A stretch of 53,648 nt of DNA from the NCBI RefSeq assembly GCF_014646055.1, contig NZ_BMMS01000039.1, positions 2,869-56,516 on the forward strand. The letters are read 5' to 3'. A model generated the notes under the pieces. That model was given only the letters and a program-made list of their open reading frames with translations, was not told the origin of the DNA and made no database searches. Position 1 is the stretch's first letter; each line of letters starts with the position of its first letter. The DNA comes from Wenjunlia tyrosinilytica. Lineage in GTDB: Bacteria; Actinomycetota; Actinomycetes; Streptomycetales; Streptomycetaceae. The position numbers were made by a program, and so were the translations under genes. Shown here one piece after another: positions 17,390 to 39,428 of the stretch.

Positions 17390-17394
17390 GGAGG

Positions 17395-19548: not shown

Positions 19549-19555
19549 GGCACCT

Positions 19556-20167: not shown

Positions 20168-20234
20168 AGCGTTTCACCCTTCCGGTGGAAGGCCATCGGT
20201 CTTTGGAGTCGTTGGCAGCCGCTGCGGCGAGCGG

Positions 20235-21968: not shown

Positions 21969-22205
21969 CTCGGCTTCCCCTCAAGCTTCTCCGTCTCCCG
22001 AAGCGGCAGCAGCTTTGCACGACCGGCCACGCCGAGGAGGACAAATGCGAGAATTGACAACGGCCCCGGACGACGCCCACCCGCAGTGCGGGTGGGCACC
22101 GGGGATCTTCCGCTTCTACGTCTTGCGTGGCGGATCGGCCCCGCACGCGCGGGGACGCGGGGCGGTCGCGGAATCTCGCACCGCCCCGCGACCACTCCCC
22201 CACGC
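21969..22205. promoter_or_regulatory. cas3-cse1 intergenic region with hairpin and repeat-like sequences
   Basis: This 237-base gap separates cas3 from cse1. It holds a 10-bp perfect hairpin at 22075-22097, a repeat-like sequence at 22132-22159 (about 20 of 28 positions like the CRISPR repeat) and a CGGGGATCTTCC segment ending at 22111 that mimics the repeat 3' half. A plus-strand AGGAGG followed by ATG at 22045 opens a short frame that runs to 22251 into cas3; it is probably fortuitous. The region presumably carries the cse1 promoter on the minus strand, but no clear hexamers were found. Confidence 0.5.
22075..22097 (-). terminator. Hairpin downstream of cas3
   Basis: GCCCACCCGC (22075-22084) and GCGGGTGGGC (22088-22097) form a perfect 10-bp stem with a three-base loop, about 110 bases past the cas3 stop. 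It lacks a T tract, as is common for Streptomyces terminators, and would separate cas3 from Cascade transcription. Confidence 0.6.
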
Positions 22206-25166: not shown

Positions 25167-25302
25167 GTCTCTCCCTAGCTCTGTACGCTAGTTGGGCACC
25201 CTAGACCTCACCACTGACAATGCCTCCCACCTCACCGGCAAGCGGGGATGGTTGCTGAATGAGATCGGCGCTGGTCGCGTATAGAAGGGCAGGTCAGCAA
25301 GT
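25167..25302 (+). promoter_or_regulatory. Leader of CRISPR array 2 / divergent cas3 promoter region
   Basis: The 136 bases between the cas3 start and the first array-2 repeat. The array's repeat orientation and distal decay place its leader here, so this segment should hold a rightward pre-crRNA promoter and a leftward cas3 promoter. A TATAGA hexamer at about 25279-25284, some 20 bases before the first repeat, is a possible -10 element; the -35 is unclear. It is AT-richer than its flanks. Confidence 0.65.
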
Positions 25303-25818
25303 GTCGGCCCCGCGCGTGCGGGGATGTTCCCCGAATCGCCGTGCCCGAGCTGACGTACATGTAGTCGGCCCCGCGCGTGCGGGGATGTTCCGGGGCCGGA
25401 GGGCGCGCCGATCCTGGACCCGGGGTCGGCCCCGCGCGTGCGGGGATGTTCCGCAACGACGTTCGGCAGCACAAAGGTCACGACCCGTCGGCCCCGCGCG
25501 TGCGGGGATGTTCCGAAATTCCGCGGCAGCACCCTGCGCACCAGCAGGTCGGCCCCGCGCGTGCGGGGATGTTCCTTCCTCGCCTGTGTCGAGGGCCCAT
25601 TGGAGGCAGTCAGCCCCGCGCGTGCGGGGATGTTCCGCGGTGTCCCCGACTAGGAGATTGCCGAACTCCGTCGGCCCCGCGCGTGCGGGGATGGTCCCAG
25701 CAGCGACCGTCTCAGGCCCGGTCCTTGTACGTCGTCCCCGAGCCAGCCAGGATGGTCCGCCATGCACCACGGACCGCGGCGCCGCGTCGGATCGGCCCCG
25801 CGCCTGCGGGGATGGTCC
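25303..25818 (+). CRISPR. CRISPR array 2 (type I-E): 9 repeats, 8 spacers, decaying at the right end
   Basis: Repeats start at 25303, 25364, 25425, 25487, 25548, 25609, 25670, 25731 and 25791. The consensus begins GTCGGCCCCGC and ends GCGGGGATGTTCC with loop GCGT, one base different from array 1 (GCCT). Spacers are 33 bases except the third (34) and eighth (32). The first five repeats are identical. Position 4 is mutated at 25609 (GTCAG), the sixth-last base at 25670 (ATGGTCC), 25731 is heavily mutated (GTCGTCCCCGAGCC) and 25791 begins ATCGG. A further remnant may start at 25847. Decay on the right puts the leader on the left. Confidence 0.97.
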
Positions 25819-26037
25819 GAGCGTCCGGGTCCTCCCGTTCTTCCCTGTCGGTCCCACGCCAGCGGGAAGCAGAGGGCGATGATGCCAGGCGAGCCGGGGC
25901 TGGGTCGCGTAGGCGGGCGAGTCCGGGTGCAGGGCCAGCTGTCTGGTCTTCCGCTGGAAGGCAATGGCCAGCCGGGGCGACGCCGGACTGCGTCGGTGCA
26001 GGCTGCTCGTTGGTGGTGGCGCTCGTGGACTTGGTCA
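25819..26037. other. Array 2 trailer region
   Basis: It contains a possible tenth, strongly decayed repeat at 25847-25874 (begins GTCGGTCCCACGCC). The rest, to the stop of the HTH gene at 26038, holds no recognisable gene. Confidence 0.45.
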
Positions 26038-27483
26038 TCATTGCCTCCTATCCGCGTATCCGACGGTCATCATCGAGCTGCTGTTCGCCAGCTTGAGAAC
26101 GCGCTGAACCAGGTCAGCGCCGTAGATGTGTACAGCGGCGGCGCGTCCGAGGGTGTCGAGGGTGGTCGTGACAAGCGTGGTATCGCCCGCCATGAACTCG
26201 CCGAGCGCCGTTGCCCGCATTTCCGCCAGGTCCTGCGGGCTCAGGTCCTCGATACTGGCGAGCTCGGGCAGCGCCGGTCCCTGGTCGTGAGGCTGTGCCA
26301 GGGGGGCGAGCGCCTCGGCCACCAGGCGACGGACGGCCATGCAGCGGGGAGCTTCCCAGTCGCCCTCCCACTCCTGGTGGCGGGCCTGCTCCGCGCGGCG
26401 AGAGTCCCGGTACGCCTGGACGGCCCGGGTGCGGCCGTCGGCGTCCGGCCACAGTGCCACCGCGCCGTTCAGCCGCTGGGCGAGGAACCCCGACGGGCGG
26501 TCCACCCGGGCAGGGACGTCGCGGCAGTCCAGGAACGCGATGACCTCCTCCGCCGTCCATCCGGCGTCCGAGACCTCCCGCAGGATCCAGGCGATCCGGG
26601 GCACCGAGGCACGGCCCATCCACGGCACCTGGCGGATCAGTTCGGAAGCCAGCTGGAAACGGCGCCCCACTGAAGTGAGCTTCCGGCCACGCTTGCCCCT
26701 CTTCGGGATGGGGGACTTGCTTCGCCCGCTCGCGCGCTTGCTCTCAGGGGGCAACACAGTAGTACCGGCAGTGGAAAGGCTTGCTGGAATACCCTCCATT
26801 AGGGTGCAACGCGATGTTGCCGAAACACTAGTCACAACAGCCCTGCCAGTCCCCTTCCGGGCGCCCTTCGCGGGGGCCTTCGAGGACGTCTTCGAGCGCG
26901 GCCTACGGACCTTCCGGGCCGCCTTGTTCGCCAGCTTCGCCATCAACTCCCGGCCCGCCTCCGCGATCCCAGTCATCCGCCGCGTCGTTCCCTCACCCAC
27001 CGTACGCACGCCCAGGGCGACGTCGAACTCCATCGGGGTCATCCGCGCGAACTCCGACGCCCGCGCGGCTTCGCCGCGTACCCGGGTCCCACGCACCACA
27101 TAGGCGAGCAGTCCTGTCTCCCGCAGCATCGCCAGGTGGTACTCCACTGCCCGCTCGGACAGGCCCGTACGGCGCTTCAGGTACTCGATGCCCGGGCGGC
27201 ACGGGGACAGCTCCGCGAGCTCCTGGGCGACGCGCACCGTCGTCGGCCCGAAGCTACGCGGCCCGTGCGACCGATGCCGGCGCGGCTCGTACAGACCCGA
27301 CCCGGCCACCCAGTGGACTGCCTGTATCCATGAGTAGGCATCCACCGCGATCCGTCCGGACGTCGTCGACACCCACTGAGCCGACTCCGGCACCCACAAC
27401 CCGGGCAGCACGCCGACCGCCCCTGCCTCGGAGCGTAGGGATGGCACCTGCCCCAACGCGGCCTGCACCGCCACGGCACTCAT
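26038..27483 (-). CDS. Winged-helix/HTH protein, 481 aa, actinomycete plasmid/ICE-type
   Basis: The N-terminal part (MSAVAVQAALGQVPSL to SFGPTTVRVAQELAEL) precedes a winged-helix domain: YLKRRTGLSERAVEYHLAMLRETGLLAYVVRGTRV, about residues 145-180. A Lys/Arg/Ser-rich linker with KAARKVRRPRSK follows (about 230-320). A C-terminal helical domain contains RRFQLASELIRQVPWM and ARIAWILREVSDAGW-type segments. I recall this architecture as common in Streptomyces accessory regions as a helix-turn-helix protein of unknown role, possibly a replication or regulatory factor. ATG 27483 was preferred over upstream codons because homologous sequence begins there. Its function is not established. Confidence 0.75.
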   Translation of the reverse strand: MSAVAVQAALGQVPSLRSEAGAVGVLPGLWVPESAQWVSTTSGRIAVDAYSWIQAVHWVAGSGLYEPRRHRSHGPRSFGPTTVRVAQELAELSPCRPGIEYLKRRTGLSERAVEYHLAMLRETGLLAYVVRGTRVRGEAARASEFARMTPMEFDVALGVRTVGEGTTRRMTGIAEAGRELMAKLANKAARKVRRPRSKTSSKAPAKGARKGTGRAVVTSVSATSRCTLMEGIPASLSTAGTTVLPPESKRASGRSKSPIPKRGKRGRKLTSVGRRFQLASELIRQVPWMGRASVPRIAWILREVSDAGWTAEEVIAFLDCRDVPARVDRPSGFLAQRLNGAVALWPDADGRTRAVQAYRDSRRAEQARHQEWEGDWEAPRCMAVRRLVAEALAPLAQPHDQGPALPELASIEDLSPQDLAEMRATALGEFMAGDTTLVTTTLDTLGRAAAVHIYGADLVQRVLKLANSSSMMTVGYADRRQ

Positions 27484-28367: not shown

Positions 28368-29009
28368 ATGACCCTCATGAATGCGACCGAGGCTCTGCCC
28401 AATGACAGCTACGCCCCGCCTGCCCGGCGACGCGGATATGTCCAGGCGATGCGCAAGATCGCTGAAATGCGGCCGGCCGACACGCTGGTGCGCGTCTACA
28501 TCAGTGCGCCCCCCTCGGTCATTGAGCGCCCCAACTGGGGGCGCCGCCTCGAAGCCGTCCGCGATGCCCTGCCTGGCGGTGTGGAGCTGCTCTACTTCAA
28601 CACCGTCTTCCCTGCCGACATCGACATGGCCAAGGCCTGGCCGGAGTTCGCGGAGACACTCGATGGACTCGTGGTCATCGGCAAGAGGAAAAAGGCCGGC
28701 AGCCTCGGCCGGACGCTGCAACTCGGCCCCGTGGCCCGCACCGAACTCCTCACCCTCGTGGCGCAAGGCAAGCCGGTGCTGCTTCACACCCTCGAGTACG
28801 GTCTCGTCCCAGTACTGGACTGCGCGCCCAATCGCACCGGGCCCAAAGGCCGTGAGCGCCTGAAGCTGAAGATCCCCGATGGGTGGAGTTCCGAAGCCCC
28901 GACTCTGAGAGCAGCCCTTACTGCGCTGGCGCCACCCCGCAGGGAAGGAGACGCGGTACAGGCCGACCAGTCGGCTCACCTGGTGCATCCTTCCGGGCCT
29001 CCTCACTAA
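28368..29009 (+). CDS. Hypothetical protein, 213 aa
   Basis: Family not recognised. The central part alternates strands and helices (TLVRVYISAPPSVIER, VELLYFNTVFPADIDMA, DGLVVIGKRKKAGSLGRTL, KPVLLHTLEYGLVPVLDC). This looks like a Rossmann-like alpha/beta domain, perhaps nucleotide or nucleoside related, with a basic GKRKKAGSLGRT loop. No catalytic signature was identified. ATG 28368 has GAGG five bases upstream; ATG 28377 is an alternative. It converges with the DUF89 gene across a hairpin at 29121-29141. Confidence 0.6.
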   Translation: MTLMNATEALPNDSYAPPARRRGYVQAMRKIAEMRPADTLVRVYISAPPSVIERPNWGRRLEAVRDALPGGVELLYFNTVFPADIDMAKAWPEFAETLDGLVVIGKRKKAGSLGRTLQLGPVARTELLTLVAQGKPVLLHTLEYGLVPVLDCAPNRTGPKGRERLKLKIPDGWSSEAPTLRAALTALAPPRREGDAVQADQSAHLVHPSGPPH

Positions 29010-29262: not shown

Positions 29263-30474
29263 TCACCGCGTGACCTCCGGCGCCTGCACGAGGGCGTGGG
29301 TGCCGCTGGTGCGCCACTCTTGGTTGGATGCTTCGAGGGTGACCAGTTGTTGCTGGCTCAGTCCGACGATCACGTCGGACTTTAAGGTGCGCAACGCCGC
29401 GACGGGGCTGGGGAAGTAACCCGTCAGGTCCTCGTAGGGCGTGGTTGCGTCCCAATGCCGGTCGCCGACGAGGCGACGGTAGTTGAGATCGCCCTTGACG
29501 ATCGTCACTGAGGAGGCCCCGAACTCGTCTCGCAGATCCTCCGGCATCGCGCTGTACGGCAGCGGGGCACAGAAGAAGGGGTGCGAGCGCACATCCAGGC
29601 GACCGGTGCCCATCGCGTCCCACAGGCGCCGGCCGATCTCGCCGGCCTGGCCGGGAGCGTGGACCAGGCGGCGCAGGCTGTCGATGACATCGGACATCGT
29701 CGCGTCGGAGACGTAGTACGGATAGGGCTTGACGTGCAGCACGGCGGCCGCCGCGTAGCCGCGCTGGAGCAAGTGGTCGATGAGGACCAGGTCGGGGATG
29801 AGTTCGCGGCCGGAGTTGTCTGCCACCACCGCGACGGTCCCGGGCGTTACCTCGGTGAGGCGTGACCACAGCGACGTGCTGTCGTCGACGACCAGGTTCG
29901 TCGCGATGGCTCCCGGTGCCGCGTTCTCGATGCGGAACCCCAAATCGGCGCGGTTCCCCCACAGCGACGACTGCAGGAGCATCTCGGCCTGCTCGGGCGC
30001 CGAGCGAGACGGGAGCGCATCGAGGGCCCGGAGTTCCTCGTCCACCACGGAGCTGTGCAGCTCTGCCCGTTTGGCCGGGGCGAAGGGGTCAATGCCCTGC
30101 CATGGACCGGTCTCGAAGTAGCTGGTGGCGGCGAGTAGCTTGCGGTAGAAGAAGCTCTCCGCCCAGAGGAAGGGCACGTCGAGCCAGGAGCGGCCGAAGT
30201 AGTCGCTCCCCCAGGCCGCCCACGCCTCGTGGTCGAACGCGTTGGTGTCCAGGGGCGTGATGCTGCCGTCGGTGATCTCTTCCAGCAGGTTGTCCAGAGC
30301 CCGGCGCTGCTGCGGACTGTACGGGTAGGCGCTGCGGACCTGCTGAATCAGCGCCGGGTGGCGCTTTTCCAGGACACCGTGGGCGAACGAGCCCGGGAGG
30401 TTGCTCAGGATCACCGGTGCGCCGGCATGGTTTGAGCCCTGGCCGGTCCGGCCGCGGGGTGCTTGCGCGGTCAT
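29263..30474 (-). CDS. ARMT1/DUF89-family metal-dependent phosphatase
   Basis: A 403-residue protein with the family's hallmark C-terminal motif VTIVKGDLNYRRLVGDRHW near residue 320 and the metal-site segment VAVVADNSGRELIPDLVLID near residue 214. DUF89 enzymes are Mn/Co-dependent damage-control phosphatases acting on phospho-sugars and related phosphometabolites. The N-terminal helical domain (RRALDNLLEEITDG, then NAFDHEAWAAWGSDYFGRSW) is typical. The start is ATG 30474. It points toward the 28368 gene and is followed upstream by a GNAT gene in the same direction after a 120-base gap. Confidence 0.88.
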   Translation of the reverse strand: MTAQAPRGRTGQGSNHAGAPVILSNLPGSFAHGVLEKRHPALIQQVRSAYPYSPQQRRALDNLLEEITDGSITPLDTNAFDHEAWAAWGSDYFGRSWLDVPFLWAESFFYRKLLAATSYFETGPWQGIDPFAPAKRAELHSSVVDEELRALDALPSRSAPEQAEMLLQSSLWGNRADLGFRIENAAPGAIATNLVVDDSTSLWSRLTEVTPGTVAVVADNSGRELIPDLVLIDHLLQRGYAAAAVLHVKPYPYYVSDATMSDVIDSLRRLVHAPGQAGEIGRRLWDAMGTGRLDVRSHPFFCAPLPYSAMPEDLRDEFGASSVTIVKGDLNYRRLVGDRHWDATTPYEDLTGYFPSPVAALRTLKSDVIVGLSQQQLVTLEASNQEWRTSGTHALVQAPEVTR

Positions 30475-30595
30475 CGCTGATCAGCCCTTCGTGTCCTGCG
30501 CACTGCCTCGCTTCGTACGTACACATCAGCAGGTGGATACGGGTCGTGCCCCGCGAGCCCAGGAGTGACCCACGATGGGCAGACGTCACGATGGT

Positions 30596-31150
30596 TCATG
30601 GTGAGAACGGTCGCTCCCATTCGTGTGCGAGGACGGAGTACAGGACGCTGTCCCGCCAAGAGCTGTTGGTGAACACGTGATCCCGCAAAACGCCTTCCCG
30701 TACGAAGCCAAGCTTTTCCACAATGGCGATCGAGGCCGCGTTCTCCGGCCCGATGGCCGCACTGATTCGGTGCAGACCGAGCTCGGCGAAGGCATAGGTG
30801 GTCAGAGCGCGGGCCGCGTCCGTGGCGTAGCCGCGGCCCCATTCCTCTGCTGCGATGGCGTAGCCCAGCTTTCCGGCCTTGACCCCGGCGAAGCCGATCC
30901 GCGCGAAGCCGATGACGCGGTCGTCATCCTGCTTGGTCACCGCCAGGTAGTACTCAGTCCGCGGCTCTTGCTGAGCGCGTTCGAGAGTTCCATCGATCAT
31001 GTCGATGGCCTGGTCGCGGCTACGGCTGTCGAAGGACAGCCAGGTGGTGACCTTGTCGTCGCCGACGATCGCCAGGACGTCGTCGATGTCCTGCATGGAG
31101 AACTCCCGCAGGACGACGCTGACGCCGGTGACGCGGATCGGATACGGCAA
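30596..31150 (-). CDS. GNAT-family N-acetyltransferase
   Basis: A 184-residue RimJ/RimL-type acetyltransferase using acetyl-CoA. The core is LGYAIAAEEWGRGYATDAARALTTYAF, where the R/Q-x-x-G-x-G/A pyrophosphate loop appears as EEWGRGYATDA at about residues 105-115; it is followed by LGLHRISAAIGPENAASIAIVEKLGF. The start is assigned to TTG 31150 because AGGAG lies five bases upstream and the fold begins directly after; a much longer open frame upstream is not protein-like. The substrate is unknown. Confidence 0.88.
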   Translation of the reverse strand: MPYPIRVTGVSVVLREFSMQDIDDVLAIVGDDKVTTWLSFDSRSRDQAIDMIDGTLERAQQEPRTEYYLAVTKQDDDRVIGFARIGFAGVKAGKLGYAIAAEEWGRGYATDAARALTTYAFAELGLHRISAAIGPENAASIAIVEKLGFVREGVLRDHVFTNSSWRDSVLYSVLAHEWERPFSP

Positions 31151-31408
31151 CGGGACTCCTAACGAGGCAGGGACTTCAGTGGCGTGCGGGCGAAGATCTC
31201 GATCTGCTCGTGCAGGTCGCCACCGGCGTCGGCGAGTGGCGAGTCCCGCAGAAGGGTCACCGGAAGTGCGGCGAGCGATCATCTGCCCCGGATCCAGCAT
31301 GACGACCGCTGTACGAGCGGAGAAGGTCTGGCTGTAGCAGCGGCGTAGCAGTGGCGTGGAACCATCGTGGAATTCCGCGGCGTCAGCAGCACGGATAGGG
31401 TCGCCGAC

Positions 31409-32056
31409 GTGAACCTCGCCCTCTTTGACTTGGACGGCACACTGGTCGACCGGCAAGCTGCCTTCACTGGCGCCGTCGCCGACCTGTGCCGGGCGTACAG
31501 CTTCGGGCCCGAGGTCGAAACCTGGATGCTTACCGAACTCGCCGACCGGGCCAACGCCGCGGACTTCGTCCGGCTGCGCGAGGCCTTCGCGCTCACCGAG
31601 CCTGCGGCGCAGCTGTGGCAGGCGTACGTCGACCAGGTGGCAGCTGCCGTCTCCTGCCGCCCCGCCGTCCTCAATGGCCTGGCCCGGCTCCGCGAGAGCG
31701 GCTGGACGATCGGCATCGTCACCAATGGCGCCTCCGATATCCAGCGCGCCAAGCTCACCGCGACTGGCCTCGCCGACCTGGTCGACGGCGTCGCGGTCTC
31801 CGGCGACATCGAGGTCCGCAAGCCCGACCCGCAGCTGTTCCAGCTCGCGGCTGCCCGCTGCCATACGGTGCTGTCCCGCGACGTCTGGATGACCGGCGAC
31901 AACCCGGCCTGCGACATCGGCGGCGGTCACCAGGTCGGCCTGCGCACCATCTGGCTGCGCGGACGCCCTTGGCCCGACGGCGTCCAGGCTCCGCACCATG
32001 CCGTCGACGACGTCACCGATGCCTTCGCCGTCCTGCTCAACGACCGCCCGGAGTAG
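31409..32056 (+). CDS. HAD-superfamily hydrolase
   Basis: A 215-residue phosphatase-type HAD protein. Motif I is FDLDGTLVD at about residues 5-13 (two catalytic Asp). Motif II is TNGASDIQRAK, the conserved Lys is in VRKPDPQLF and motif IV is TGDNPACDIGGGHQVG. The GTG start at 31409 puts motif I at the usual distance; an upstream GTG at 31367 adds 14 residues of doubtful sequence. It is only four bases ahead of the DUF1932 gene and probably cotranscribed with it. The substrate is unknown, likely a small phosphometabolite. Confidence 0.9.
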   Translation: MNLALFDLDGTLVDRQAAFTGAVADLCRAYSFGPEVETWMLTELADRANAADFVRLREAFALTEPAAQLWQAYVDQVAAAVSCRPAVLNGLARLRESGWTIGIVTNGASDIQRAKLTATGLADLVDGVAVSGDIEVRKPDPQLFQLAAARCHTVLSRDVWMTGDNPACDIGGGHQVGLRTIWLRGRPWPDGVQAPHHAVDDVTDAFAVLLNDRPE

Positions 32057-32060
32057 ACCC

Positions 32061-32903
32061 GTGGACCAGCAGACCGTCGGCATTCTCCACCCCGGCAGCA
32101 TGGGCGCGGCTGTCGCTGCATGCGCCGCGACCAACGCCGACGCGGTGCTGTGGTGCCCGGCAGGCCGGAGCCCGGGGAGCATCGTCCGTGCGCAGCGGCA
32201 CGGTCTCGAGCCGGTCGCCACACTCCACGAGCTCTTGGACCGGGCCGACACGGTGATCAGCTTGTGCCCGCCCGCTGCCGCAGAAGATCTGGCACGCGAG
32301 GTAGCCGAGCACGGCTTCGAAGACGGTGTGTACGTGGAGGCGAACGCGATCAATGCCGAACGGGCCGCGCGCATCGCGGCGCTGCTTCCACAGACCCGGG
32401 CAGTTGTCGACGCCGGTGTCGTGGGGTCACCGCCGGTCGGCGGCAAGACTCCCACGTTGTACCTGGCGGGCCCGGCTGCCGGTACCGAGTGGGTGGAGGC
32501 GCTGTTCGCTGGCACCGCGATGCGGACAAAGGTGCTGGGCAGCGCGATCGGGCAGGCTTCTGCTCTAAAGCTTGCGTACGCCACCTTCCAGAAGACTTCC
32601 CGGGTGCTCGTGGCTTTGTCGATCGGGTTGGCCCGCGCGCACGGCGTCGACCAGGAGCTCATCGGCATCGCCTCTCGACGCGCAGACTCGTACCTCGCCG
32701 AACCGGAGTACGTCGCCAAGACGGCGGCCAGGGCGTGGCGGTGGGGCCCGGAGCTGGAGGAAGCCGCCGACATGCTCGCGGCCGCCGGCCTGCCTCCGGA
32801 GATGCTGCGCGCGGCCGCGGCCACGCTGGCACGGTGGGACGACACCAAGGACGACGGCGATCTCACACTCACCGACGCCCTCAACCGTCTGGCCCAGCCG
32901 TAG
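32061..32903 (+). CDS. NAD(P)-binding 3-hydroxyisobutyrate dehydrogenase-like protein with DUF1932
   Basis: A 280-residue protein with an N-terminal Rossmann fold (TVGILHPGSMGAAVAACAA, residues 4-22). It has the beta-hydroxyacid dehydrogenase signature region AGVVGSPPVGGKTPTLYLAGP, and the LKLAYATFQKTSRVLVALS helix carrying the conserved Lys, followed by the C-terminal DUF1932 domain. GTG 32061 immediately follows the HAD stop. The family oxidises or reduces small hydroxy acids; this subfamily is poorly characterised. It converges with the kinase gene at 32911-33480. Confidence 0.87.
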   Translation: MDQQTVGILHPGSMGAAVAACAATNADAVLWCPAGRSPGSIVRAQRHGLEPVATLHELLDRADTVISLCPPAAAEDLAREVAEHGFEDGVYVEANAINAERAARIAALLPQTRAVVDAGVVGSPPVGGKTPTLYLAGPAAGTEWVEALFAGTAMRTKVLGSAIGQASALKLAYATFQKTSRVLVALSIGLARAHGVDQELIGIASRRADSYLAEPEYVAKTAARAWRWGPELEEAADMLAAAGLPPEMLRAAAATLARWDDTKDDGDLTLTDALNRLAQP

Positions 32904-32910
32904 CCCATCG

Positions 32911-33480
32911 TCATGCCGTCGCCGCTCCCGTCCACGCGTGCAGCAGCTCGTCAATGAGTCGCGCCGACCGCTCCGGCTTGGTCGCCACGGTCTCCACCTT
33001 CAGGTCCCAGAAATAGTCCGGGTGCGCGTCCATGTCCTCGCGGGTCGCCTTCCACGCCGCCAGCCGGTCGGCGGTGTCGATGTCCCCGCGCTGCTCGGAC
33101 CGCTTCGAAGTTACGACCTGCGGGCACCACAGCAGCACCCGCATCCAGGTGGCCGGATAGCCCTCCACCAGGGCGCGGATGCCGTCGATCTGCCCGAGGT
33201 GCACCACGGGCACGCCGACTGCGAACGCCTGGTCCAGGCCCGGCCGGTCGATCGCATAGACGTTGCCGTACCGGCTGTTCGCGTAGATGACGTCGCCAGC
33301 AGTCTCCAGCTCCTGCAGCTGCTCGGTCGTGCCCATCCGGTAGCCGACGCTCTTGCCCGAGCCGACCTTCAACCGGGCGAACTGCTGGTACCGCCCATCG
33401 AGCGCGGCCAACGCCGCGGTGACGGAGTCCTTCCCCGAGGCTGGCGGCCCGTACAGGATGAGGCCCTGGGGGCGGCTCAT
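32911..33480 (-). CDS. Guanylate-kinase-like P-loop protein
   Basis: A 189-residue protein with Walker A motif GPPASGKDS at residues 11-19 and a second part YANSRYGNVYAIDRPGL, then VVHLGQIDGIRAL, similar to the lid and core of guanylate kinases. It may phosphorylate a nucleotide or a similar small molecule, or act on another substrate; the specificity loop was not resolved. The ATG at 33480 overlaps the stop of the upstream XRE-kinase gene by four bases, so the two are expressed together. Confidence 0.8.
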   Translation of the reverse strand: MSRPQGLILYGPPASGKDSVTAALAALDGRYQQFARLKVGSGKSVGYRMGTTEQLQELETAGDVIYANSRYGNVYAIDRPGLDQAFAVGVPVVHLGQIDGIRALVEGYPATWMRVLLWCPQVVTSKRSEQRGDIDTADRLAAWKATREDMDAHPDYFWDLKVETVATKPERSARLIDELLHAWTGAATA

Positions 33481-34511
33481 ACGTGCACCGCCCCGATCGC
33501 CTGCCGGGCCTGGTCGGCCAGGGACACCGCTGCCCCGAGCCGGTTGTCGACGACCATGTGCTGGACGACCGGGCGCAGCTGCAGGTCGATCGTCGTCAGG
33601 TACTCATCCCAGCGCGCCAACTTCCAGGCATCGCGGGCCGCCGACCGGAACGAGATGTACTCGCGCATCGACTCCGCGTCGCACTGCACCCAGATAGGCG
33701 CAACATCAACCCCCATCGAGCTGCACCGATGCGTCAGCCGCGCCATCCAGTCCGTGTCCGTCAGCTCCGCGATGAACGGCGCGGTGAGCACCGTGCTGAT
33801 CCCACAGCGCACGTTCGCCATCGCCGACTGCATCAGGCAGTCGTACTCCACCGGTCGCACCTGCGTGCGGTAGAGGTCGGTGTGCCGGTCGTTCGGGTCC
33901 CCGCCCAGCGCCTTCAGCAGCCGCTCCACCAGCGGGCGGGTCAGCGGGTCCTTGTCCAGCAGCGGCCAGCCGGTCAACTGCACGAAGAAGCGCGCGAGCT
34001 CGGTCTTCCCGCTGCCGGCGAAGCCGCCGACCAGCAGAAGCGTAGGTCGATGCGGGTCTCCGCCGGTGTGCCGACGCTTCCACGCGTCGATGATCCGCTG
34101 CTGAAGCCCCATGTGGTCCGCGGCATCCGTGCCGGGAGTAATGCGGTTGATCGCCCGTTCCACGGCAAGGACGTGCGCGCCATTGCTCCTATCGTCAAGA
34201 GGCGTCAGCTTGAACTGGGTCTCCTCGCCGGGCAGGGGATTGCGGAATCCCAGCTCCGGCTCGGTCGCCCGGTACAGCAGGCAGTACGCACGCCGATAGT
34301 GCGGACCCGGGTAGACCTCGCCCTGTTCGTGCTGCCACAGCGTCTGCGGATTCGCCGCCGGCACTCCCTTGAGCTTGGCGCGCTCTGCCACCTCCCGAAG
34401 GCGCTCACCGGCCTTTTCCAGCGTCAGGCCATGGGCCTCGCGCTGCTCACGCAGCTTGTCGGGTCTCCAGCCCACGTGGTTCCTACCCACCCGCTGAGCC
34501 TCCGTCGTCAT
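33477..34511 (-). CDS. XRE-like HTH plus P-loop (zeta-toxin-like) kinase fusion
   Basis: Residues 15-80 form an HTH-like region (LREQREAHGLTLEKAGERLR to NPQTLWQHEQGEVYPG), as in XRE regulators. Residues 155-340 form a P-loop kinase domain with Walker A GFAGSGKT at 163-170, a DKDPLTRPL segment and MREYISFRSAARDAWKL, resembling zeta toxins or chloramphenicol phosphotransferase-like kinases. A DNA-binding domain fused to a small-molecule kinase suggests a ligand-sensing or self-regulating enzyme. It is coupled by a four-base overlap to the guanylate-kinase-like gene. The start is ATG 34511. Confidence 0.75.
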   Translation of the reverse strand: MTTEAQRVGRNHVGWRPDKLREQREAHGLTLEKAGERLREVAERAKLKGVPAANPQTLWQHEQGEVYPGPHYRRAYCLLYRATEPELGFRNPLPGEETQFKLTPLDDRSNGAHVLAVERAINRITPGTDAADHMGLQQRIIDAWKRRHTGGDPHRPTLLLVGGFAGSGKTELARFFVQLTGWPLLDKDPLTRPLVERLLKALGGDPNDRHTDLYRTQVRPVEYDCLMQSAMANVRCGISTVLTAPFIAELTDTDWMARLTHRCSSMGVDVAPIWVQCDAESMREYISFRSAARDAWKLARWDEYLTTIDLQLRPVVQHMVVDNRLGAAVSLADQARQAIGAVHV

Positions 34512-34564
34512 GATCGGGAGCCTAAGACCAGACCCCGAAATCCCATGTGTACGCGGATGTTGAA

Positions 34565-34594
34565 AGCCCGTGTACGAGCAGGTGCACGGGCTTC
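34565..34594 (-). terminator. Terminator after GntR gene
   Basis: AAGCCCGTG (34565-34573) pairs with CACGGGCTT (34586-34594) across a 12-base loop. It lies about 100 bases beyond the stop of the minus-strand GntR gene and ahead of the XRE-kinase start. Confidence 0.6.
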
Positions 34595-34691: not shown

Positions 34692-35444
34692 TCAGGCATC
34701 GAACGCATATTCGAGAACGTACGCGGCGCTGTCGAGGGTCATCTCGTTCACCTCGACTGCACGGCCGTCGGCATCGAAGGCCGTGCGGCACAGTTTGATC
34801 ACTGGGCGCTCCAGGGGCATCTCCAGGCCTTCGGCTTCCTCGGCTGTGGGAAGGCGGCAGCGGACTTCCTCGCGGAAATGGGCCGGCCCGTGGCCGATCT
34901 CTGCGAGGCGGGCATAGGCGCCCCCCTCCCCGGTGTCGACGCGAGTGATGGCGGTGCCGTCGACCAGCTCGAACGGCAGGTACGAGGTGGCGAGCATGAC
35001 GGGCCGCCCGTCCAGGACGAAGCGCCGCGACCGGGCGCACACCGAGCCACCGTCTTCGATATCGAGCATGCGCGCGATGTGCTCCGGAGCTGCGAGGGCG
35101 TCAACTCTGACATCGATCGTCACGGGCCGTTCTTCGTCCGCCGACCAAATGGACTTGCCCGCACCCCACTGCGTGCGCGCCAGCCGCTGAATGCCGTGGC
35201 GGCGGATCGGGCGGAACGAAAGGACGCGGGCGCCAGCCCCTCTCTTCGTCTCCACCAGCCCTTCGGTCCGCAGGATCTTCAGTGCTTGCCGTGCGGTCAG
35301 CACGGCAACGCTGTACTGCTCGGCCAGAGCCGACTCGCCGGGCAGGCGGTCTCCGGGGCCATATCGACCCGACTCGATCGCCGCCTTCAAGTCGTCGGCA
35401 ATCCGCTGGTACTTCGGCCGCCGCGGGCCCGCCTCACTCGCCAT
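34692..35444 (-). CDS. GntR-family regulator with UTRA domain
   Basis: A 250-residue transcription regulator. The N-terminal winged helix has IADDLKAAIESGRYGPGDRL, then SALAEQYSVAVLTARQALKI and EGLVETKRGAGARV (about residues 10-75). The C-terminal UTRA ligand-binding domain includes RRFVLDGRPVMLATSYLPFE and ending segments typical of HutC/FadR-UTRA regulators. ATG 35444 has GGGAGACGT just upstream. Two direct repeats at 35459-35483, directly before the start, probably form its operator, implying autoregulation. Regulators of this type (Kor proteins) control transfer genes in Streptomyces plasmids. Confidence 0.93.
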   Translation of the reverse strand: MASEAGPRRPKYQRIADDLKAAIESGRYGPGDRLPGESALAEQYSVAVLTARQALKILRTEGLVETKRGAGARVLSFRPIRRHGIQRLARTQWGAGKSIWSADEERPVTIDVRVDALAAPEHIARMLDIEDGGSVCARSRRFVLDGRPVMLATSYLPFELVDGTAITRVDTGEGGAYARLAEIGHGPAHFREEVRCRLPTAEEAEGLEMPLERPVIKLCRTAFDADGRAVEVNEMTLDSAAYVLEYAFDA

Positions 35445-35458
35445 ACGTCTCCCTACCT

Positions 35459-35483
35459 CGTTAGCGATCCTACGGCCGTTAGC
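35459..35483 (-). promoter_or_regulatory. Direct-repeat operator candidate upstream of GntR gene
   Basis: CGTTAGCGATC (from 35459) and CGTTAGCTATC (from 35477) are direct repeats 18 bases apart, 15-45 bases before the GntR start. Their position and spacing fit an autoregulatory operator; binding is not shown. Confidence 0.55.
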
Positions 35484-35711
35484 TATCGAGGCATCGGAAG
35501 GGGCGCCTTGATCCACACGGGAGCTGCGCTCGCCGAGCGGGAGCACCACCCCTACTGCGACGCCGTGTCCATGTGCTCAGGGCCGTGCCGTTCCCTGAGC
35601 TGCGGAGACCGTACCCAACTGCCCCTGTAGGCCTCATCCGCGGGAGTTCACTTGAAGCCCGACACCACGTGCCCCCCACAAAGCGAACCGTTGGAAGCAG
35701 GAAGAGGTGGG

Positions 35712-36029
35712 TCAATGGGCGCGGCCATCCGCTTCACAAGGAATGAGCGCGGCGGCCGCAGCGCGAGCGGACACGTACGGCCCGTGCTTCTTGGTGGCTC
35801 CCCCGGGTCTGGCGTAACAGTCCTGGAAGGGGCCCGGGCTGGTGGTGTGGATCTCGCCGACGACGTGGCCTTCATCCGCCACCAGGTGTGGCCCGGTCCG
35901 CTGCTCGCCGATGGCGTAATGCAGGCCCGACCGCTTGCAGATAGCGGTGGTCACGTCCTGGCGGTGGAGCTCTCGGAGTGCGGCTTCTGCGGTGGTCAGC
36001 GCTTCAGGCGTGCCGTCCTGGTCGCTCAT
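35712..36029 (-). CDS. Small hypothetical protein, 105 aa
   Basis: Not recognised. It is a soluble acidic/histidine-containing protein with helical N-terminus TTAEAALRELHRQDVTTAI and a beta-rich middle GLHYAIGEQRTGPHLVADEG. The ATG at 36029 overlaps the stop of the upstream GntR gene by four bases (ATGA), so it is probably cotranslated with that regulator. Confidence 0.65.
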   Translation of the reverse strand: MSDQDGTPEALTTAEAALRELHRQDVTTAICKRSGLHYAIGEQRTGPHLVADEGHVVGEIHTTSPGPFQDCYARPGGATKKHGPYVSARAAAAALIPCEADGRAH

Positions 36030-36787
36030 GATTGCCCTTGCTCAAGTGGAAGATCGTCGTATGTGAGCTGGATGCGGTCTGCCGGTGCCGTGGTGCGGAG
36101 AACTTCCAGGACGCGGCCTTCCGGGCCCTTGGTGACGCGCTCGACAGCTATGACGGGGACCTTGCCGCTGATCTTGAGCTGGGCTGCCTCGCTCAGGGTG
36201 GGCATGCGGGAATCGACCTGCTCGCTTGCTGTCACGGGAGGATGGCCAGCTGCGGTGAGCGCACCGAAGACGCCGCCCACGACCTTGCCCTCGCCGGAGA
36301 TGCCAGCTTCGTCAGCCAGGTCGGCCGGATACCAAACGTGTTGGACCTGGACGATGTCGTCGGACCCGATCATGGCGTACCGGCGACGGTGTAGCAGTTC
36401 CGTATCGGCAGGCACGCCCAGGAGTGCTGCAATGTCTTCCGGCCCCTGGCCCCGGGAGACGTGCACGACCTTCATTTGCCCATCGAGCCCCTGCTCGGCG
36501 CAGGCCGTCTCCCAGGGTCCCTTGTTTCCGCCCGGTCGGAGGACCCGGCTGTACCGGTTCAAGGGGATGCGGACGCGGGTGCGGTTCCGTACTTGCGTTC
36601 CACCTTTGCCCATGGTGACTACCAGGCCTTCGTCGGCGAGTTCCCCGATCGCGTCCCGGACCGTCTGCCGGGAGAGGCTGTAGATCTCCATGAGGTCGAT
36701 GATCCGAGGCAGGGTCGTACCCGAGGGGTACTCCCCGCTGTTGATACGCCGACGCAGATCGTCGGCCAGCTGTCGATAACCGCGCAC
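36026..36787 (-). CDS. GntR-family regulator with UTRA domain (KorSA-like)
   Basis: A 253-residue regulator. The winged helix is YRQLADDLRRRINSGEYPSG, then LMEIYSLSRQTVRDAIGELA and EGLVVTMGKGGTQVR, followed by a UTRA domain (RRRYAMIGSDDIVQVQHVWYP and downstream). The GTG start at 36787 has GGGAGG eight bases upstream. A 14-bp imperfect inverted repeat at 36812-36866 just upstream is a plausible operator controlling this gene and the divergent 37117 gene. Regulators of this class in Streptomyces integrative elements repress transfer or replication genes. Confidence 0.9.
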   Translation of the reverse strand: MRGYRQLADDLRRRINSGEYPSGTTLPRIIDLMEIYSLSRQTVRDAIGELADEGLVVTMGKGGTQVRNRTRVRIPLNRYSRVLRPGGNKGPWETACAEQGLDGQMKVVHVSRGQGPEDIAALLGVPADTELLHRRRYAMIGSDDIVQVQHVWYPADLADEAGISGEGKVVGGVFGALTAAGHPPVTASEQVDSRMPTLSEAAQLKISGKVPVIAVERVTKGPEGRVLEVLRTTAPADRIQLTYDDLPLEQGQS

Positions 36788-37116: not shown

Positions 37117-37725
37117 ATGACCATCACGTCCGCGATGCCCACGGCCAAGAAGCGGCCGACTCGGACCCGTACGAAGCGGGTCAGCAACCGCCCCGCCATC
37201 AAGCTCTCCCAGCTCCTGCCCTCGCACATCGACCTGCGGGAACCGGTGAAGGCGGTCCTCGTCTGCGAGGACTGCGGGACCTGGTGCCCCATCACCGGCA
37301 TGCAGAGCCGGGTCCAGAAGCTGGTCCCGCACCACACCGGCAAAGCCGATGAAGTCGACGCGAACCGCTGCCGCGGCAGCAACCGCCGCGTGGAGTTCGA
37401 CATGACGATCCCCGAGTGGCGCCAGGCCCTGGCCGACGCCGACAAGGAGACGTCGTCCCGTCGCCCGACCACCGTGCTGCGCAAGCCCAAGGTTGCGCCC
37501 GCGCCGGCCGTCAGCCAGATCGCCGCGCAGAAGCAGACGACGGCGGAGGAAGAGCCGGGCGACGGCCGGGCCCTGTGGCTGCTGCGGGAGATGAAGTGGG
37601 CGTCGACGGAGTCGGCGGTTCGCGAGACCGACACCAGGCGCGCGCAGCGACCCACCGGTGACGCCCCGCTGGACAGCCTCACAGTCCCGCTGACCACGCT
37701 CCGCCCCAAGCGCCCCGAGCACTGA
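37117..37725 (+). CDS. Hypothetical protein with zinc-ribbon-like segment, 202 aa
   Basis: A basic N-terminus (TAKKRPTRTRTKRVSNRP) is followed by a cysteine-containing segment CEDCGTWCPITGMQSRV near residue 50 and HHTGKADEVDANRCRG near 73, resembling a zinc ribbon. The C-terminal half is charged and disordered-looking. ATG 37117 has GAGGAGATCC upstream. It may be a small DNA-binding or plasmid maintenance protein. It is probably controlled by the operator region at 36812-36866. No family name is recognised. Confidence 0.65.
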   Translation: MTITSAMPTAKKRPTRTRTKRVSNRPAIKLSQLLPSHIDLREPVKAVLVCEDCGTWCPITGMQSRVQKLVPHHTGKADEVDANRCRGSNRRVEFDMTIPEWRQALADADKETSSRRPTTVLRKPKVAPAPAVSQIAAQKQTTAEEEPGDGRALWLLREMKWASTESAVRETDTRRAQRPTGDAPLDSLTVPLTTLRPKRPEH

Positions 37726-38020: not shown

Positions 38021-38680
38021 TTAGGGGGTGGTGGTCGCCAGCAGTTCGGGCAGGATCCGCATGTCGTCGAACACGACGGTGCCTGGTCCCTCCAGCCGCG
38101 AGGACGGGGTGAGGCCGCCGCAGTAGCCGAAGGCCCGCATGCCGGCGGCCCGAGCTGCCTGCACTCCGTATGCGCTGTCCTCGATCACCGCGCACCGCTC
38201 GGGTTGTACCCCCATGGAGCGTGCAGCGTGCTGGAAGAGGTCGGGTGCAGGCTTGCCTCGACGGACGTCGGCCGCACTGAAGATGCGGTTCTCGAAGTGG
38301 TCCATCAGATCGGCGAGCTCCAGGCTTCGTCGGACGCCGGTGTGGTCACCGTTCGAAGCGACGCAGACGACCGTGGTGAGGCGATTCAGGACTTCTGCGA
38401 TGCCGTCGACAGAGGTCAGTTCGGCCTCGAAGGCTGCCTCATACAGATGCTGGTATTGCTGCTGCCAGCCCTTTTCCAGGCGCCGTCCGAGCCGTTCCTC
38501 CACGGCTGCGGTGTAGATCTCGGTCGACGAGCCCACAAACCGCTCGATGATCTCAGCTTCGGTGAACGTGCACCCCAGGTCGGCCATGATCATCGCGTCT
38601 ACTTTGACGCATATCTTCTCGCTGTCCACCAGCACGCCGTCACAGTCGAAGATCACCAGTTCAACAGGGCTCTGCGTCAT
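38021..38680 (-). CDS. HAD-superfamily hydrolase, beta-phosphoglucomutase/GPH type
   Basis: A 219-residue HAD protein with motif I VIFDCDGVLVDS at residues 8-19, the substrate cap domain, SNGDHTGVRRSL, Lys in RRGKPAPDLFQHAA and motif IV VIEDSAYGVQAARAAGM. Such enzymes dephosphorylate sugar phosphates, phosphoglycolate or nucleotides. ATG 38680 is used. In the same frame and directly upstream lies a recombinase fragment (next entry), so the gene begins right at a recombination scar. It is isolated on the minus strand. Confidence 0.9.
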   Translation of the reverse strand: MTQSPVELVIFDCDGVLVDSEKICVKVDAMIMADLGCTFTEAEIIERFVGSSTEIYTAAVEERLGRRLEKGWQQQYQHLYEAAFEAELTSVDGIAEVLNRLTTVVCVASNGDHTGVRRSLELADLMDHFENRIFSAADVRRGKPAPDLFQHAARSMGVQPERCAVIEDSAYGVQAARAAGMRAFGYCGGLTPSSRLEGPGTVVFDDMRILPELLATTTP

Positions 38681-38869
38681 GATCAGCAGCGTAGAGGGGG
38701 CGTGCAGGCCCCGCACCGCGTAGGGCAAGCCCATCTGCTCCAGCCAGCCGAAGAAGTCGCGCAAGTCGTAGGCGTAGCCCCGCACCGTGTTCGGCGATGT
38801 GCCCCTCGCCGCCAGGTACACGAGGAAGTCCTCCACGGCATCGACGGGCAAGCCGTCGTCCCTCACCAC
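38681..38869 (-). pseudogene. Tyrosine recombinase N-terminal fragment
   Basis: In frame with and upstream of the HAD gene, this frame reads GLPVDAVEDFLVYLAARG, then TSPNTVRGYAYDLRDFFGWL and EQMG. This is the SAM-like core-binding domain of phage/plasmid integrases of the XerC/D type. It is cut off after about 60 residues and lacks the catalytic domain with R, H and Y. A GTG at 38869 would be its start. It marks a past integration or deletion event and cannot act as an integrase. Confidence 0.7.
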
Positions 38870-39170: not shown

Positions 39171-39428
39171 ATGGACTGGAGAGATCACGCCGGCTGCAAG
39201 GACGAGGACCCCGAGCTGTTCTTCCCGGTCGGGAACACCGGCCCTGCCCTGCTGCAGATCGAGGAGGCCAAGGCCGTCTGCCGTCTGCGCTGCCCAGTGA
39301 TGAAGCAGTGCCTGCAGTGGGCGCTCGAGATCGGCGAGAACGCCGGTGTGGGGGGCGGGCTCAGCGAGGACGAGCGCCGCGCCATGAAACGTCGCCGCGC
39401 CCGGCGCCGTGCTCGCCAAGGGGCCTGA
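39171..39428 (+). CDS. WhiB-like iron-sulfur transcription factor
   Basis: An 85-residue protein with the four cysteines of the WhiB family, which hold a 4Fe-4S cluster: C9 in HAGCKDEDPELFFP, C37, C41 and C47 (C-x3-C-x5-C). The usual G-V-W-G-G turn is GVGGG here. The basic tail MKRRRARRRAR binds DNA. WhiB proteins partner sigma factor RpoV/HrdB to regulate development or stress genes. ATG 39171 has GGAGG upstream. It opens the co-directional transfer block and is followed by a 20-bp hairpin. Confidence 0.92.
   Translation: MDWRDHAGCKDEDPELFFPVGNTGPALLQIEEAKAVCRLRCPVMKQCLQWALEIGENAGVGGGLSEDERRAMKRRRARRRARQGA

What the first reader, a model, noticed from the sequence alone, without database searches (positions are those of the whole stretch)
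29263..34511. Cluster of phosphatases and kinases of unknown substrate
An ARMT1/DUF89 phosphatase, a GNAT acetyltransferase, a HAD phosphatase, a DUF1932 dehydrogenase and two P-loop kinases, one fused to an HTH domain, sit within 5.3 kb with tight coupling (4-base overlap for the kinase pair; 4-base gap for HAD-DUF1932). Opposing kinase and phosphatase activities suggest a metabolite repair, antimetabolite or stress-response module rather than random cargo.
Basis: inference. Interest (0 to 1): 0.55.

Follow-up and report, generated by a model that had tools for sequence, protein, structure and literature searches.

The report
Plasmid-borne kinase–phosphatase–dehydrogenase gene cassette
Four of the six genes pointed out form a real set of small-molecule enzymes, led by a kinase with its own DNA-binding head, that recurs on plasmids and mobile elements of Streptomyces and its relatives; the other two genes are unrelated neighbours, and what the set does is not yet known.

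Summary
Of 74 relatives with enough downstream sequence, all have HTH-kinase, second kinase and DUF1932 dehydrogenase together and 72 also the HAD phosphatase; DUF89 is nearby in 1, the GNAT in 0. The cassette lies on plasmids (61 of the 65 plasmid records with the second kinase are Streptomyces); the kinase pair also lies in pSAM2-like elements of other actinobacteria; further copies lie in chromosomal islands that often hold an aminoacyl-tRNA synthetase gene. The DNA-binding head varies (two XRE types, GntR, none), or a Nudix hydrolase replaces the protein. A 23-bp promoter box stands upstream of the HTH-kinase in 75 of 80 loci and occurs once in the host genome. Loci with other heads match it no better than shuffled DNA, but so do two with a diverged window-type head. 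Best reading: an autoregulated mobile-element cassette that makes or turns over a phosphorylated, perhaps nucleotide-like, metabolite, plausibly tied to control of conjugation; in 36 of 45 plasmid-type loci the gene directly upstream is a GntR regulator. Substrate and phenotype are not shown. 'Metabolite repair' is not specifically supported; an antimetabolite is not excluded.

The parts
33477..34511 (-). DNA-binding kinase (HTHKIN, 344 aa): N-terminal XRE-type HTH, C-terminal AAA_33 P-loop kinase with GGFAGSGKTE P-loop
   Evidence: Pfam AAA_33 45.2 bits, HTH_31 28.4 bits; 23-row alignment with invariant P-loop residues; model pLDDT 79.9, kinase part aligns to small-molecule and polynucleotide kinases, best Z 12.6
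32911..33480 (-). second kinase (KIN1, 189 aa), guanylate-kinase fold with a changed acceptor site; overlaps HTHKIN by 4 bases
   Evidence: CPT PF07931 28 bits; model pLDDT 94.4; 49 of the 50 Foldseek rows shown are guanylate kinases, best E 3.3e-12; alignment to the own genome's Gmk
32061..32903 (+). 6PGDH/3-hydroxyisobutyrate-dehydrogenase-like oxidoreductase with DUF1932 C-terminus (280 aa)
   Evidence: PF09130 61 bits; profile matches 1i36, 4ezb, 3qsg in PDB; within 4 kb of KIN1 in 49 of 49 strong places
31367..32056 (+). HAD phosphatase, FDLDGTLVD motif kept (229 aa); start may be GTG 31409
   Evidence: PF13419 83 bits; invariant F-D-L-D-x-T-L in 18 rows; present in 72 of 74 loci
34544..34566 (-). 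conserved promoter box CTTTCAACATCCGCGTACACATG upstream of HTHKIN, candidate operator for its HTH
   Evidence: upstream alignments; at up to 3 mismatches in 75 of 80 genome-contig loci and 25 of 29 family loci L003-L031; only site in the 8.49 Mb own genome for its first 21 positions at up to 3 mismatches, reversed-pattern control 0
34519..34524 (-). -10-like TAGGCT 13 nt before the HTHKIN ATG, suggesting a leaderless transcript
   Evidence: read from the upstream alignment; inference, no transcript mapped
34692..35549 (-). UTRA-domain GntR regulator directly upstream of HTHKIN (start may be 35444)
   Evidence: PF07702 89.8 bits, PF00392 68.1 bits; a GntR-cluster gene stands directly upstream in 36 of 45 plasmid-type loci
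36026..36787 (-). second UTRA-domain GntR regulator; association with the cassette not established
   Evidence: PF07702 60.5 bits
29263..30474 (-). DUF89/ARMT1 gene: neighbour, NOT part of the cassette
   Evidence: 1 of 74 loci; one match in the plasmid collection
30596..31150 (-). GNAT gene: neighbour, NOT part of the cassette
   Evidence: 0 of 74 loci within about 4.5 kb; one close relative 5.5 kb away in L094 and one distant one 8 kb away in L061

Best explanation
A mobile-element metabolic-regulatory cassette. Shown by sequence: a kernel of two kinases (one with a DNA-binding head, one of guanylate-kinase fold), joined in Streptomycetaceae by a HAD phosphatase and a DUF1932 dehydrogenase, kept together on plasmids and in some chromosomal islands, the kernel also on integrative conjugative elements. 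Inferred mechanism: HTHKIN phosphorylates a small acceptor, KIN1 adds a second phosphate to a phosphorylated (perhaps nucleotide-like) compound, the dehydrogenase and HAD reduce or oxidise it and remove phosphate, so the four set the level of one phosphorylated metabolite. Through its HTH and the promoter box, HTHKIN controls its own operon, coupling enzyme supply to that metabolite (it works like the DNA-binding kinase NadR). On plasmids and integrative elements the metabolite would act as a signal, for example the unknown ligand of the adjacent GntR repressor, to control transfer, copy state or exclusion. The signal role and the target are inference.
For: Co-occurrence: all four genes in 72 of 74 loci; 49 of 49 strong KIN1 places with DUF1932 and 45 of 49 with HTHKIN in 249 family genomes. 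Mobile context: KIN1 in 65 plasmid records (61 Streptomyces, 2 Rhodococcus, 1 Kitasatospora, 1 Pseudonocardia). On pSV2, pSGRIFU3, pSITFR-16b and the NBC_00637 plasmid it lies between a regulator gene and a DciA-family gene. Outside the family the kinase pair lies, in the two loci scanned with Pfam, in elements with RepSA and FtsK/SpoIIIE (gene order). A relative of the HTHKIN kinase domain is next to KIN1 in 17 of 17 loci fetched outside the family. Head exchange: window-type XRE, another XRE type, GntR, no head (L135, L136; open frames of only 221-222 aa). Nudix in place of HTHKIN in L117-L120 (Pfam for L117). Box: 75 of 80 loci, 25 of 29 family loci, unique in the own genome. Best match in loci with other heads (L163-L169, L177) is 9-11 mismatches, as in shuffled DNA (mostly 9-11); the other-XRE group has a conserved block of its own. 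Catalytic motifs intact. Kinase::phosphatase fusion.
Against: No substrate, product or phenotype is known. Chromosomal-type loci have no GntR directly upstream (0 of 34) and lie in biosynthesis-like islands, which fits a biosynthetic role as well as a signal. The box does not follow the head strictly: L134 and L171, with diverged window-type heads, match at only 9 and 7 mismatches; among six integrative-element loci with that head L173, L176, L178 match at 5-6 and L172, L174, L175 at 7-10; L069, L080 and L107 have no site at up to 5 mismatches. The loci are related and the other-head ones are distant, so conservation and absence both partly reflect descent. HAD-DUF1932 have no such box, so not the whole cassette is under one operator. 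Outside Streptomycetaceae DUF1932 was matched in only 2 of 17 loci, so the four-gene pathway is not universal. DUF1932 has other lives: 18 of 67 strong places lack KIN1.
Confidence: 0.42

Rival explanations
1. Biosynthetic sub-cluster: the four enzymes make the phosphorylated or nucleotide part of a family of small antibiotics aimed at aminoacyl-tRNA synthetases; the synthetases in the chromosomal islands are self-resistance copies or amide-forming enzymes, and the plasmid form makes a plasmid-borne antimetabolite.
For: 25 of 35 chromosomal-type loci have an aaRS or aaRS-like gene within the locus held (20 of 35 if loci with only the short Trp/Tyr-type protein are left out): Met, Ser, Trp, Glu, Asp/Asx, Arg, Pro types; 0 of 45 plasmid-type loci. 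Pfam confirmed the aaRS domain for SerRS, TrpRS and the short protein; the other specificities were assigned by eye. The linked SerRS is one of two SerRS in 4 of 4 genomes searched and the linked TrpRS one of two or three in 5 of 5. Neighbours include radical SAM, AdoMet synthetase, APH-like kinase, Glycos_transf_3 and FAD oxidoreductase genes.
Against: A second copy is not special: both genomes searched as outsiders also have two SerRS and both outsiders have two TrpRS; a close relative of the linked MetRS is the only strong MetRS match in three other genomes. So some linked synthetases may be ordinary genes beside an insertion point. No aaRS, and none of the four tailoring clusters looked for, near plasmid-type cassettes. 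The aaRS queries were chosen because they were seen there, loci of one type are related, and no null was computed. A DNA-binding head on a plain biosynthetic enzyme is unusual.
Confidence: 0.25
2. A plasmid-encoded defence or toxin-antitoxin-like system: a zeta/PezT-like kinase restrained by its HTH head, with accessory nucleotide enzymes.
For: The HTH plus P-loop kinase layout recalls PezAT (recalled); Zeta_toxin is a weak secondary Pfam match for the window protein (18.2 bits) and passes its cut-off in L177 and L183 (25 and 24.2 bits); the window also carries type I-E cas genes.
Against: No PADLOC model matches any of the six proteins at E up to 0.01. Zeta_toxin is below its cut-off of 22.3 bits in the window protein, where AAA_33 scores far better. 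The constant partners are metabolic enzymes, not an antitoxin. Only 2 phage records match, both weakly and in part.
Confidence: 0.1
3. Metabolite repair or housekeeping module that removes damaged phospho-metabolites.
For: HAD and Nudix families include house-cleaning enzymes (recalled); both occur here.
Against: The repair-type gene DUF89 is not part of the cassette (1 of 74). The cassette is accessory: KIN1 was found in 47 of 249 family genomes, so it is no core housekeeping set.
Confidence: 0.06
4. Chance cargo: unrelated genes that happen to be neighbours.
For: True for DUF89 and GNAT.
Against: For the four core genes: 72 of 74, recurrent 4-base overlap, fusion, and a co-directional gene order in 4 of the 74 that keeps the same genes.
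Confidence: 0.01

Closest known systems
NadR (HTH - NMN adenylyltransferase - ribosylnicotinamide kinase), recalled
   Same: An XRE-type HTH fused to a small-molecule kinase that can couple metabolite flux to transcription
   Different: No NMNAT domain; kinase is AAA_33; paired with a guanylate-kinase-fold partner, a dehydrogenase and a HAD; on mobile elements; head exchangeable
AICE nucleotide-enzyme modules: Pif (Nudix) of pSAM2 and the mdp-nud-xre cluster (PMC3218068, passages read)
   Same: Nucleotide-type enzymes and XRE regulators on actinobacterial conjugative elements; a Nudix stands in place of HTHKIN in four cassette loci, and one of these (L119) also has an HD hydrolase (Pfam) and a second Nudix (by eye) nearby
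   Different: Kinases, HAD and dehydrogenase instead of HD and Nudix; conjugal immunity not shown for the cassette
Guanylate kinase (TIGR03263) and chloramphenicol phosphotransferase-like CPT (PF07931)
   Same: Fold (guanylate kinase), P-loop, overall length; CPT Pfam cut-off passed
   Different: Only marginal matches to the guanylate kinase model, far from its cut-off; an HLGQ motif and Asn68 are invariant where Gmk has its guanine-site acids (their role is recalled; positions from one weak alignment)
T4 / bacterial polynucleotide kinase-phosphatase
   Same: Kinase fold shared by HTHKIN (Z about 12 and 11) and kinase::HAD fusion in the co-directional cassettes
   Different: The HAD is fused to KIN1, not to the AAA_33 kinase; no ligase or nuclease partner seen; dehydrogenase present
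DUF1932 oxidoreductases (PDB 1i36, 4ezb, 3qsg)
   Same: Profile match over most of the protein; NAD-binding fold and DUF1932 C-terminal domain
   Different: Named there as uncharacterised or conserved hypothetical proteins; here the gene is tied to two kinases and a HAD

Membership tests
NadR | XRE-type HTH at the N-terminus | tested here: met
   HTH_31 28.4 bits against cut-off 27
NadR | central NMN adenylyltransferase domain | tested here: not met
   Pfam scan at E up to 0.01 lists only HTH_31 and P-loop domains
NadR | represses transcription by binding promoter DNA | not testable with these tools
   box conserved in 75 of 80 loci, binding not tested
Guanylate kinase TIGR03263 | score above the curated cut-off (160.45 bits) | tested here: not met
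   window KIN1 does not list the model at E up to 1 and the best of 37 members has E 7.9e-4; the own genome's Gmk scores 233.9 bits
Guanylate kinase | fold | tested here: met
   Foldseek best E 3.3e-12, TM 0.76; 49 of 50 rows shown are guanylate kinases
Guanylate kinase | guanine-specifying acidic residues | tested here: inconclusive
   not kept in the hhalign alignment, which is weak in that region; which residues matter is recalled
CPT (PF07931) | Pfam gathering score (22 bits) | tested here: met
   28.0 bits; 37 of 37 members match at E up to 0.1
Zeta toxin / PezAT | Zeta_toxin domain above cut-off | tested here: not met
   18.2 against 22.3 bits for the window protein; relatives L177, L183 score 25 and 24.2
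Zeta toxin / PezAT | toxicity neutralised by a partner | not testable with these tools
   no assay
Known anti-phage systems (PADLOC 2.0.0) | match to a PADLOC model at E up to 0.01 | tested here: not met
   0 families for each of the six proteins
AICE conjugal-immunity module (Pif type) | located on a RepSA/FtsK-type conjugative element | tested here: inconclusive
   relatives L164 and L172: RepSA and FtsK_SpoIIIE by Pfam; not shown for the window element, whose ten scanned proteins gave no RepSA or FtsK match
AICE conjugal-immunity module (Pif type) | Nudix hydrolase as effector | tested here: not met
   none among the cassette proteins of the window; Nudix stands in place of HTHKIN only in L117-L120
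ARMT1/DUF89 (29263-30474) | PF01937 above cut-off | tested here: met
   214.1 bits

The most novel reading that the evidence does not exclude
A metabolic self-recognition circuit for conjugative elements: the DNA-binding kinase is at once the first enzyme and the sensor of a pathway that makes a phosphorylated nucleotide-like signal; the neighbouring GntR/UTRA (KorSA-type) repressor reads that signal to set transfer and exclusion; and the same chemistry was taken over (or given) by chromosomal islands that make aminoacyl-tRNA-synthetase-directed compounds, with a dedicated resistant synthetase beside them.
Probability: 0.15. Interest if true: 0.82.

Novelty: new variant of a known kind. Interest (0 to 1): 0.52.

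Why it matters
The ligand of the KorSA repressor is reported as unidentified (PMC8584621, passages read) and the mechanism of Nudix-based conjugal immunity as unknown (PMC3218068, passages read). A conserved enzyme cassette beside such a GntR gene, with an operator-like box and an exchangeable DNA-binding head, gives concrete genes for asking whether actinobacterial conjugative elements use a small-molecule signal. The chromosomal copies beside aminoacyl-tRNA synthetase genes are candidates for genome mining of synthetase inhibitors.

Tried and rejected
DUF89 and GNAT as cassette members: rejected. KIN1 as an ordinary guanylate kinase or PhnN: only marginal matches; 12 of 37 members match PhnN weakly. 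A known defence system: no PADLOC hit. Phage origin: 2 weak partial matches in the phage collection and one weak relative in viral contigs. A shared promoter box at HAD-DUF1932: none seen in the upstream alignments. Literature: seven searches listed no title or abstract start about this gene set; of the listed papers I saw passages of PMC7159879, PMC3218068, PMC11706625 and PMC8584621 only. Structure rows not listed exclude nothing. 'Extra synthetase' as proof of self-resistance: not carried by the controls.

Limits of the counts: one search scored only 8 candidates per genome (searches scored 10 and 13), so genes can be missed; before the tally I dropped 18 weaker rows, 17 and 1. One of the 18 genomes with KIN1 outside the family (G464, a fragment) was not fetched, so 17 of 18 were examined. 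Gene calls in loci come from my own codon-usage caller, not from a standard annotator. 'Plasmid-type' and 'chromosomal-type' are my labels from gene context; many 'plasmid-type' loci are draft contigs. I computed no null for the aaRS count; the expectation of about 0.05 per locus (two dozen aaRS genes per genome) is recalled.

Full report
WHAT IS THERE. The window is 53,648 bases of contig C39 of an 8.49 Mb genome, very likely of the Streptomycetaceae (inferred from the named closest relatives). The window backbone is plasmid-like: a Rep-like winged-helix protein at 26038-27483 (weak matches to phage replication initiators), WhiB at 39171-39428 and DUF2637 at 40527-42254. Relatives of its Rep-like gene and of the gene at 37117-37725 recur around other cassette copies. 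Whether C39 is a free plasmid or an integrated element was not tested.

THE REAL UNIT. I searched genome contigs with the HTH-kinase; 89 stretches encode a relative and the best 80 loci were kept. In the 74 with at least 2.6 kb downstream, KIN1 is present in 74, DUF1932 in 74, HAD in 72 and all four genes in 72; DUF89 is near in 1, the GNAT in 0, a Nudix in 2, and a relative of the 213-aa gene of 28368-29009 in 2. In 70 of 74 the two pairs converge as in the window; in 4 all genes point the same way. In the five co-directional loci of this set (one of them too short for the 74) KIN1 and HAD are one open frame of about 400 aa; an annotated example is WP_327071882 on a Kitasatospora plasmid. In a second sample, 249 genomes of the family, I took 49 strong KIN1 places: 49 of 49 have DUF1932 within 4 kb and 45 of 49 have HTHKIN within 2 kb. 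The four exceptions (L117-L120) have a Nudix-type gene instead (Pfam NUDIX for L117). One strong HTHKIN (G028) has no KIN1 found, and 18 of 67 strong DUF1932 places have no KIN1, one of them in the window's own genome.

WHERE IT LIVES. In the plasmid collection KIN1 matches 65 records, 61 of them Streptomyces, and HTHKIN 94 records, 63 of them over at least 80% of its length. On pSV2, pSGRIFU3, pSITFR-16b and the NBC_00637 plasmid the cassette lies between a regulator gene and a DciA-family gene; on pSV2 an ATP-binding-protein gene stands between the GntR and HTHKIN, and on pSCO1 no DciA gene is annotated in the stretch seen. A class-wide sample of 394 genomes gave KIN1 in 25, seven of them of the same family. 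I fetched 17 of the 18 places outside the family. In 17 of 17 a relative of the HTHKIN kinase domain is next to KIN1 (in L170 only its 187-aa kinase part was called), but DUF1932 was matched in only 2. Two of these loci were scanned with Pfam and are integrative conjugative elements of the pSAM2 kind: RepSA and FtsK/SpoIIIE in both, and in L172 also DUF2637, GntR and an integrase. A third habitat is the chromosomal-type locus. The kinase tree clusters my labels (34 rows in 5 groups; 6 changes, the least possible 4, shuffled mean 17.6). Streptomyces griseofuscus DSM 40191 carries both a plasmid copy (L032) and a chromosomal copy (L090).

EXCHANGEABLE HEAD AND PARTNERS. The kinase domain carries the window-type XRE head, another XRE-type head (L163-L169; Pfam on L163 only, HTH_31 21.9 bits, under its cut-off of 27), a GntR head (L177; Pseudonocardia pPaSha3; a Rhodococcus plasmid) or no head (L135, L136). 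The kinase parts of the two GntR-headed plasmid proteins are 48% and 41% identical to that of the window, and the pPaSha3 KIN1 is 43% identical. On pPaSha3 a D-2-hydroxyacid dehydrogenase stands where DUF1932 would be. The constant kernel is therefore the kinase pair; dehydrogenase and HAD are the usual extension in Streptomycetaceae.

THE PROMOTER BOX. Upstream of HTHKIN both plasmid- and chromosomal-type loci share a 23-bp block, consensus TTTTCAACATCYGCNTACACAYG, followed by a -10-like TAGGCT-type hexamer close to the ATG. It is within 400 bp upstream of HTHKIN at up to 3 mismatches in 75 of 80 loci; of the other five, two have a site at 4-5 mismatches and three none at up to 5; two further sites occur elsewhere in those loci (L079, L088). 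It is there in 25 of 29 family loci L003-L031 (these samples overlap in species). In the own genome its first 21 positions occur once at up to 3 mismatches, at this promoter, and the reversed pattern does not occur. In loci with another XRE head or a GntR head (L163-L169, L177) the best match upstream of the kinase is 9-11 mismatches, as in 300 shuffles of one such region (277 of them 9-11, the rest 6-8 or 12); the headless loci L135, L136 and the Nudix loci L117-L120 showed no site near the cassette at up to 6. Against a strict rule, L134 and L171 have diverged window-type heads and match at only 9 and 7, and of the six integrative-element loci with that head L178, L173, L176 match at 5, 6, 6 and L172, L174, L175 at 7, 8, 10. 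The other-XRE group has its own conserved block (GGAATGTCG...CGGCAT) in seven loci, several of one genus. Upstream of HAD no such block is seen. I read the box as an operator bound by the HTH head. Binding was not tested, and relatedness of the loci contributes to both conservation and absence.

ENZYMES. Motifs are intact: P-loops in both kinases, F-D-L-D-x-T-L in HAD, and invariant Lys170, Gln177, Lys178 of the dehydrogenase. The KIN1 model (pLDDT 94.4) matches guanylate kinases, but its sequence gives only marginal matches to the guanylate kinase models, and positions that in Gmk carry the guanine-site acids (recalled) are replaced by invariant Asn68 and His-Leu-Gly-Gln 94-97 in the alignment. 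The acceptor is thus probably a phosphorylated compound other than GMP (inference). The kinase part of HTHKIN aligns with small-molecule and polynucleotide kinases at Z 10.4-12.6, which does not name a substrate.

SURROUNDINGS THAT BEAR ON FUNCTION. In 36 of 45 plasmid-type loci the gene directly upstream on the same strand belongs to a GntR cluster (26 of the cluster that includes UTRA-type GntR, 10 short); in chromosomal-type loci 0 of 34. KorSA, the GntR repressor of pSAM2, represses replication and transfer (PMC3218068, passages); its effector is unidentified, and a KorSA homologue in S. coelicolor also acts on antibiotic genes (PMC8584621, passages). Pif of pSAM2 is a Nudix protein that blocks redundant transfer by an unknown mechanism, and several AICEs share an mdp-nud-xre cluster (PMC3218068, passages). 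L119 has an HD hydrolase (Pfam) and a second Nudix (by eye) near the cassette. On the other side, 25 of 35 chromosomal-type loci hold an aaRS or aaRS-like gene, of at least seven specificities by my reading, and 0 of 45 plasmid-type loci do (Pfam for three of the proteins). The linked SerRS is one of two in 4 of 4 genomes searched, but the two outsiders also have two; the linked TrpRS is one of two or three in 5 of 5, but both outsiders also have two. The linked MetRS type is the only strong MetRS match in three other genomes. The islands also hold AdoMet synthetase, radical SAM, Glycos_transf_3, APH-like and FAD oxidoreductase genes.

READING. The strongest statement the data carry is that a four-gene, kinase-led small-molecule cassette with a conserved promoter box is a recurrent accessory module of Streptomyces plasmids and of some biosynthesis-like islands, and that its kinase kernel also travels on integrative conjugative elements. 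That it controls conjugation through a metabolite is the reading I prefer for the plasmid form (GntR neighbour, Nudix exchange, AICE position, DNA-binding heads). A biosynthetic antimetabolite role is the main rival and may be the truth for the chromosomal form. Repair, defence and chance are less likely for the reasons listed under the rivals. The seven paper searches made listed nothing that describes the gene set; subscription literature was not searchable, so it may be in print.

Noticed in passing
window 15210-25900: Type I-E cas genes (PADLOC Cas3e 22206-25166, Cas7e 18261-19415) lie on the same plasmid-like stretch; repeat-like translated peptides near 25.3-25.9 kb suggest a CRISPR array (seen by eye, not run through a finder).
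   Followed up: no
window 38021-38869: A second HAD phosphatase frame begins with a short N-terminal integrase SAM-like segment (Phage_int_SAM_1, 25.7 bits), as if a HAD gene had been joined to an integrase remnant.
   Followed up: no
window 4804-9138: 1444-aa protein with a GT4-conflict glycosyltransferase part (PF20706, 148 bits; named by Pfam for conflict systems).
   Followed up: no
window 28368-29009; L046, L061: 213-aa protein without Pfam or NCBIfam family; relatives lie beside HAD in two other cassette loci. Looks deoxyribosyltransferase/SLOG-like by eye.
   Followed up: partly
L074-L110 (chromosomal-type loci): Biosynthesis-like islands with aminoacyl-tRNA synthetase genes of several specificities beside the cassette; possible synthetase-inhibitor clusters.
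   Followed up: partly
L135 8591-10093, L136 5825-7267: Roughly 500-aa proteins, repeat-rich with C-terminal hydrophobic segments by eye; no Pfam match for the L135 one; beside headless kinase pairs.
   Followed up: no
L163-L170, e.g. L163 9118-9852: About 244-aa protein next to the kinase pair in eight loci, without Pfam match in the two scanned; aldolase-like by eye.
   Followed up: no
L079 3542, L088 3546: A second copy of the promoter box about 4.4 kb upstream of HTHKIN, hinting at another target of the regulator.
   Followed up: no
G000:C43:20140-20964 (L121): A DUF1932 paralogue (46% identical) in the host genome without KIN1 found nearby.
   Followed up: partly
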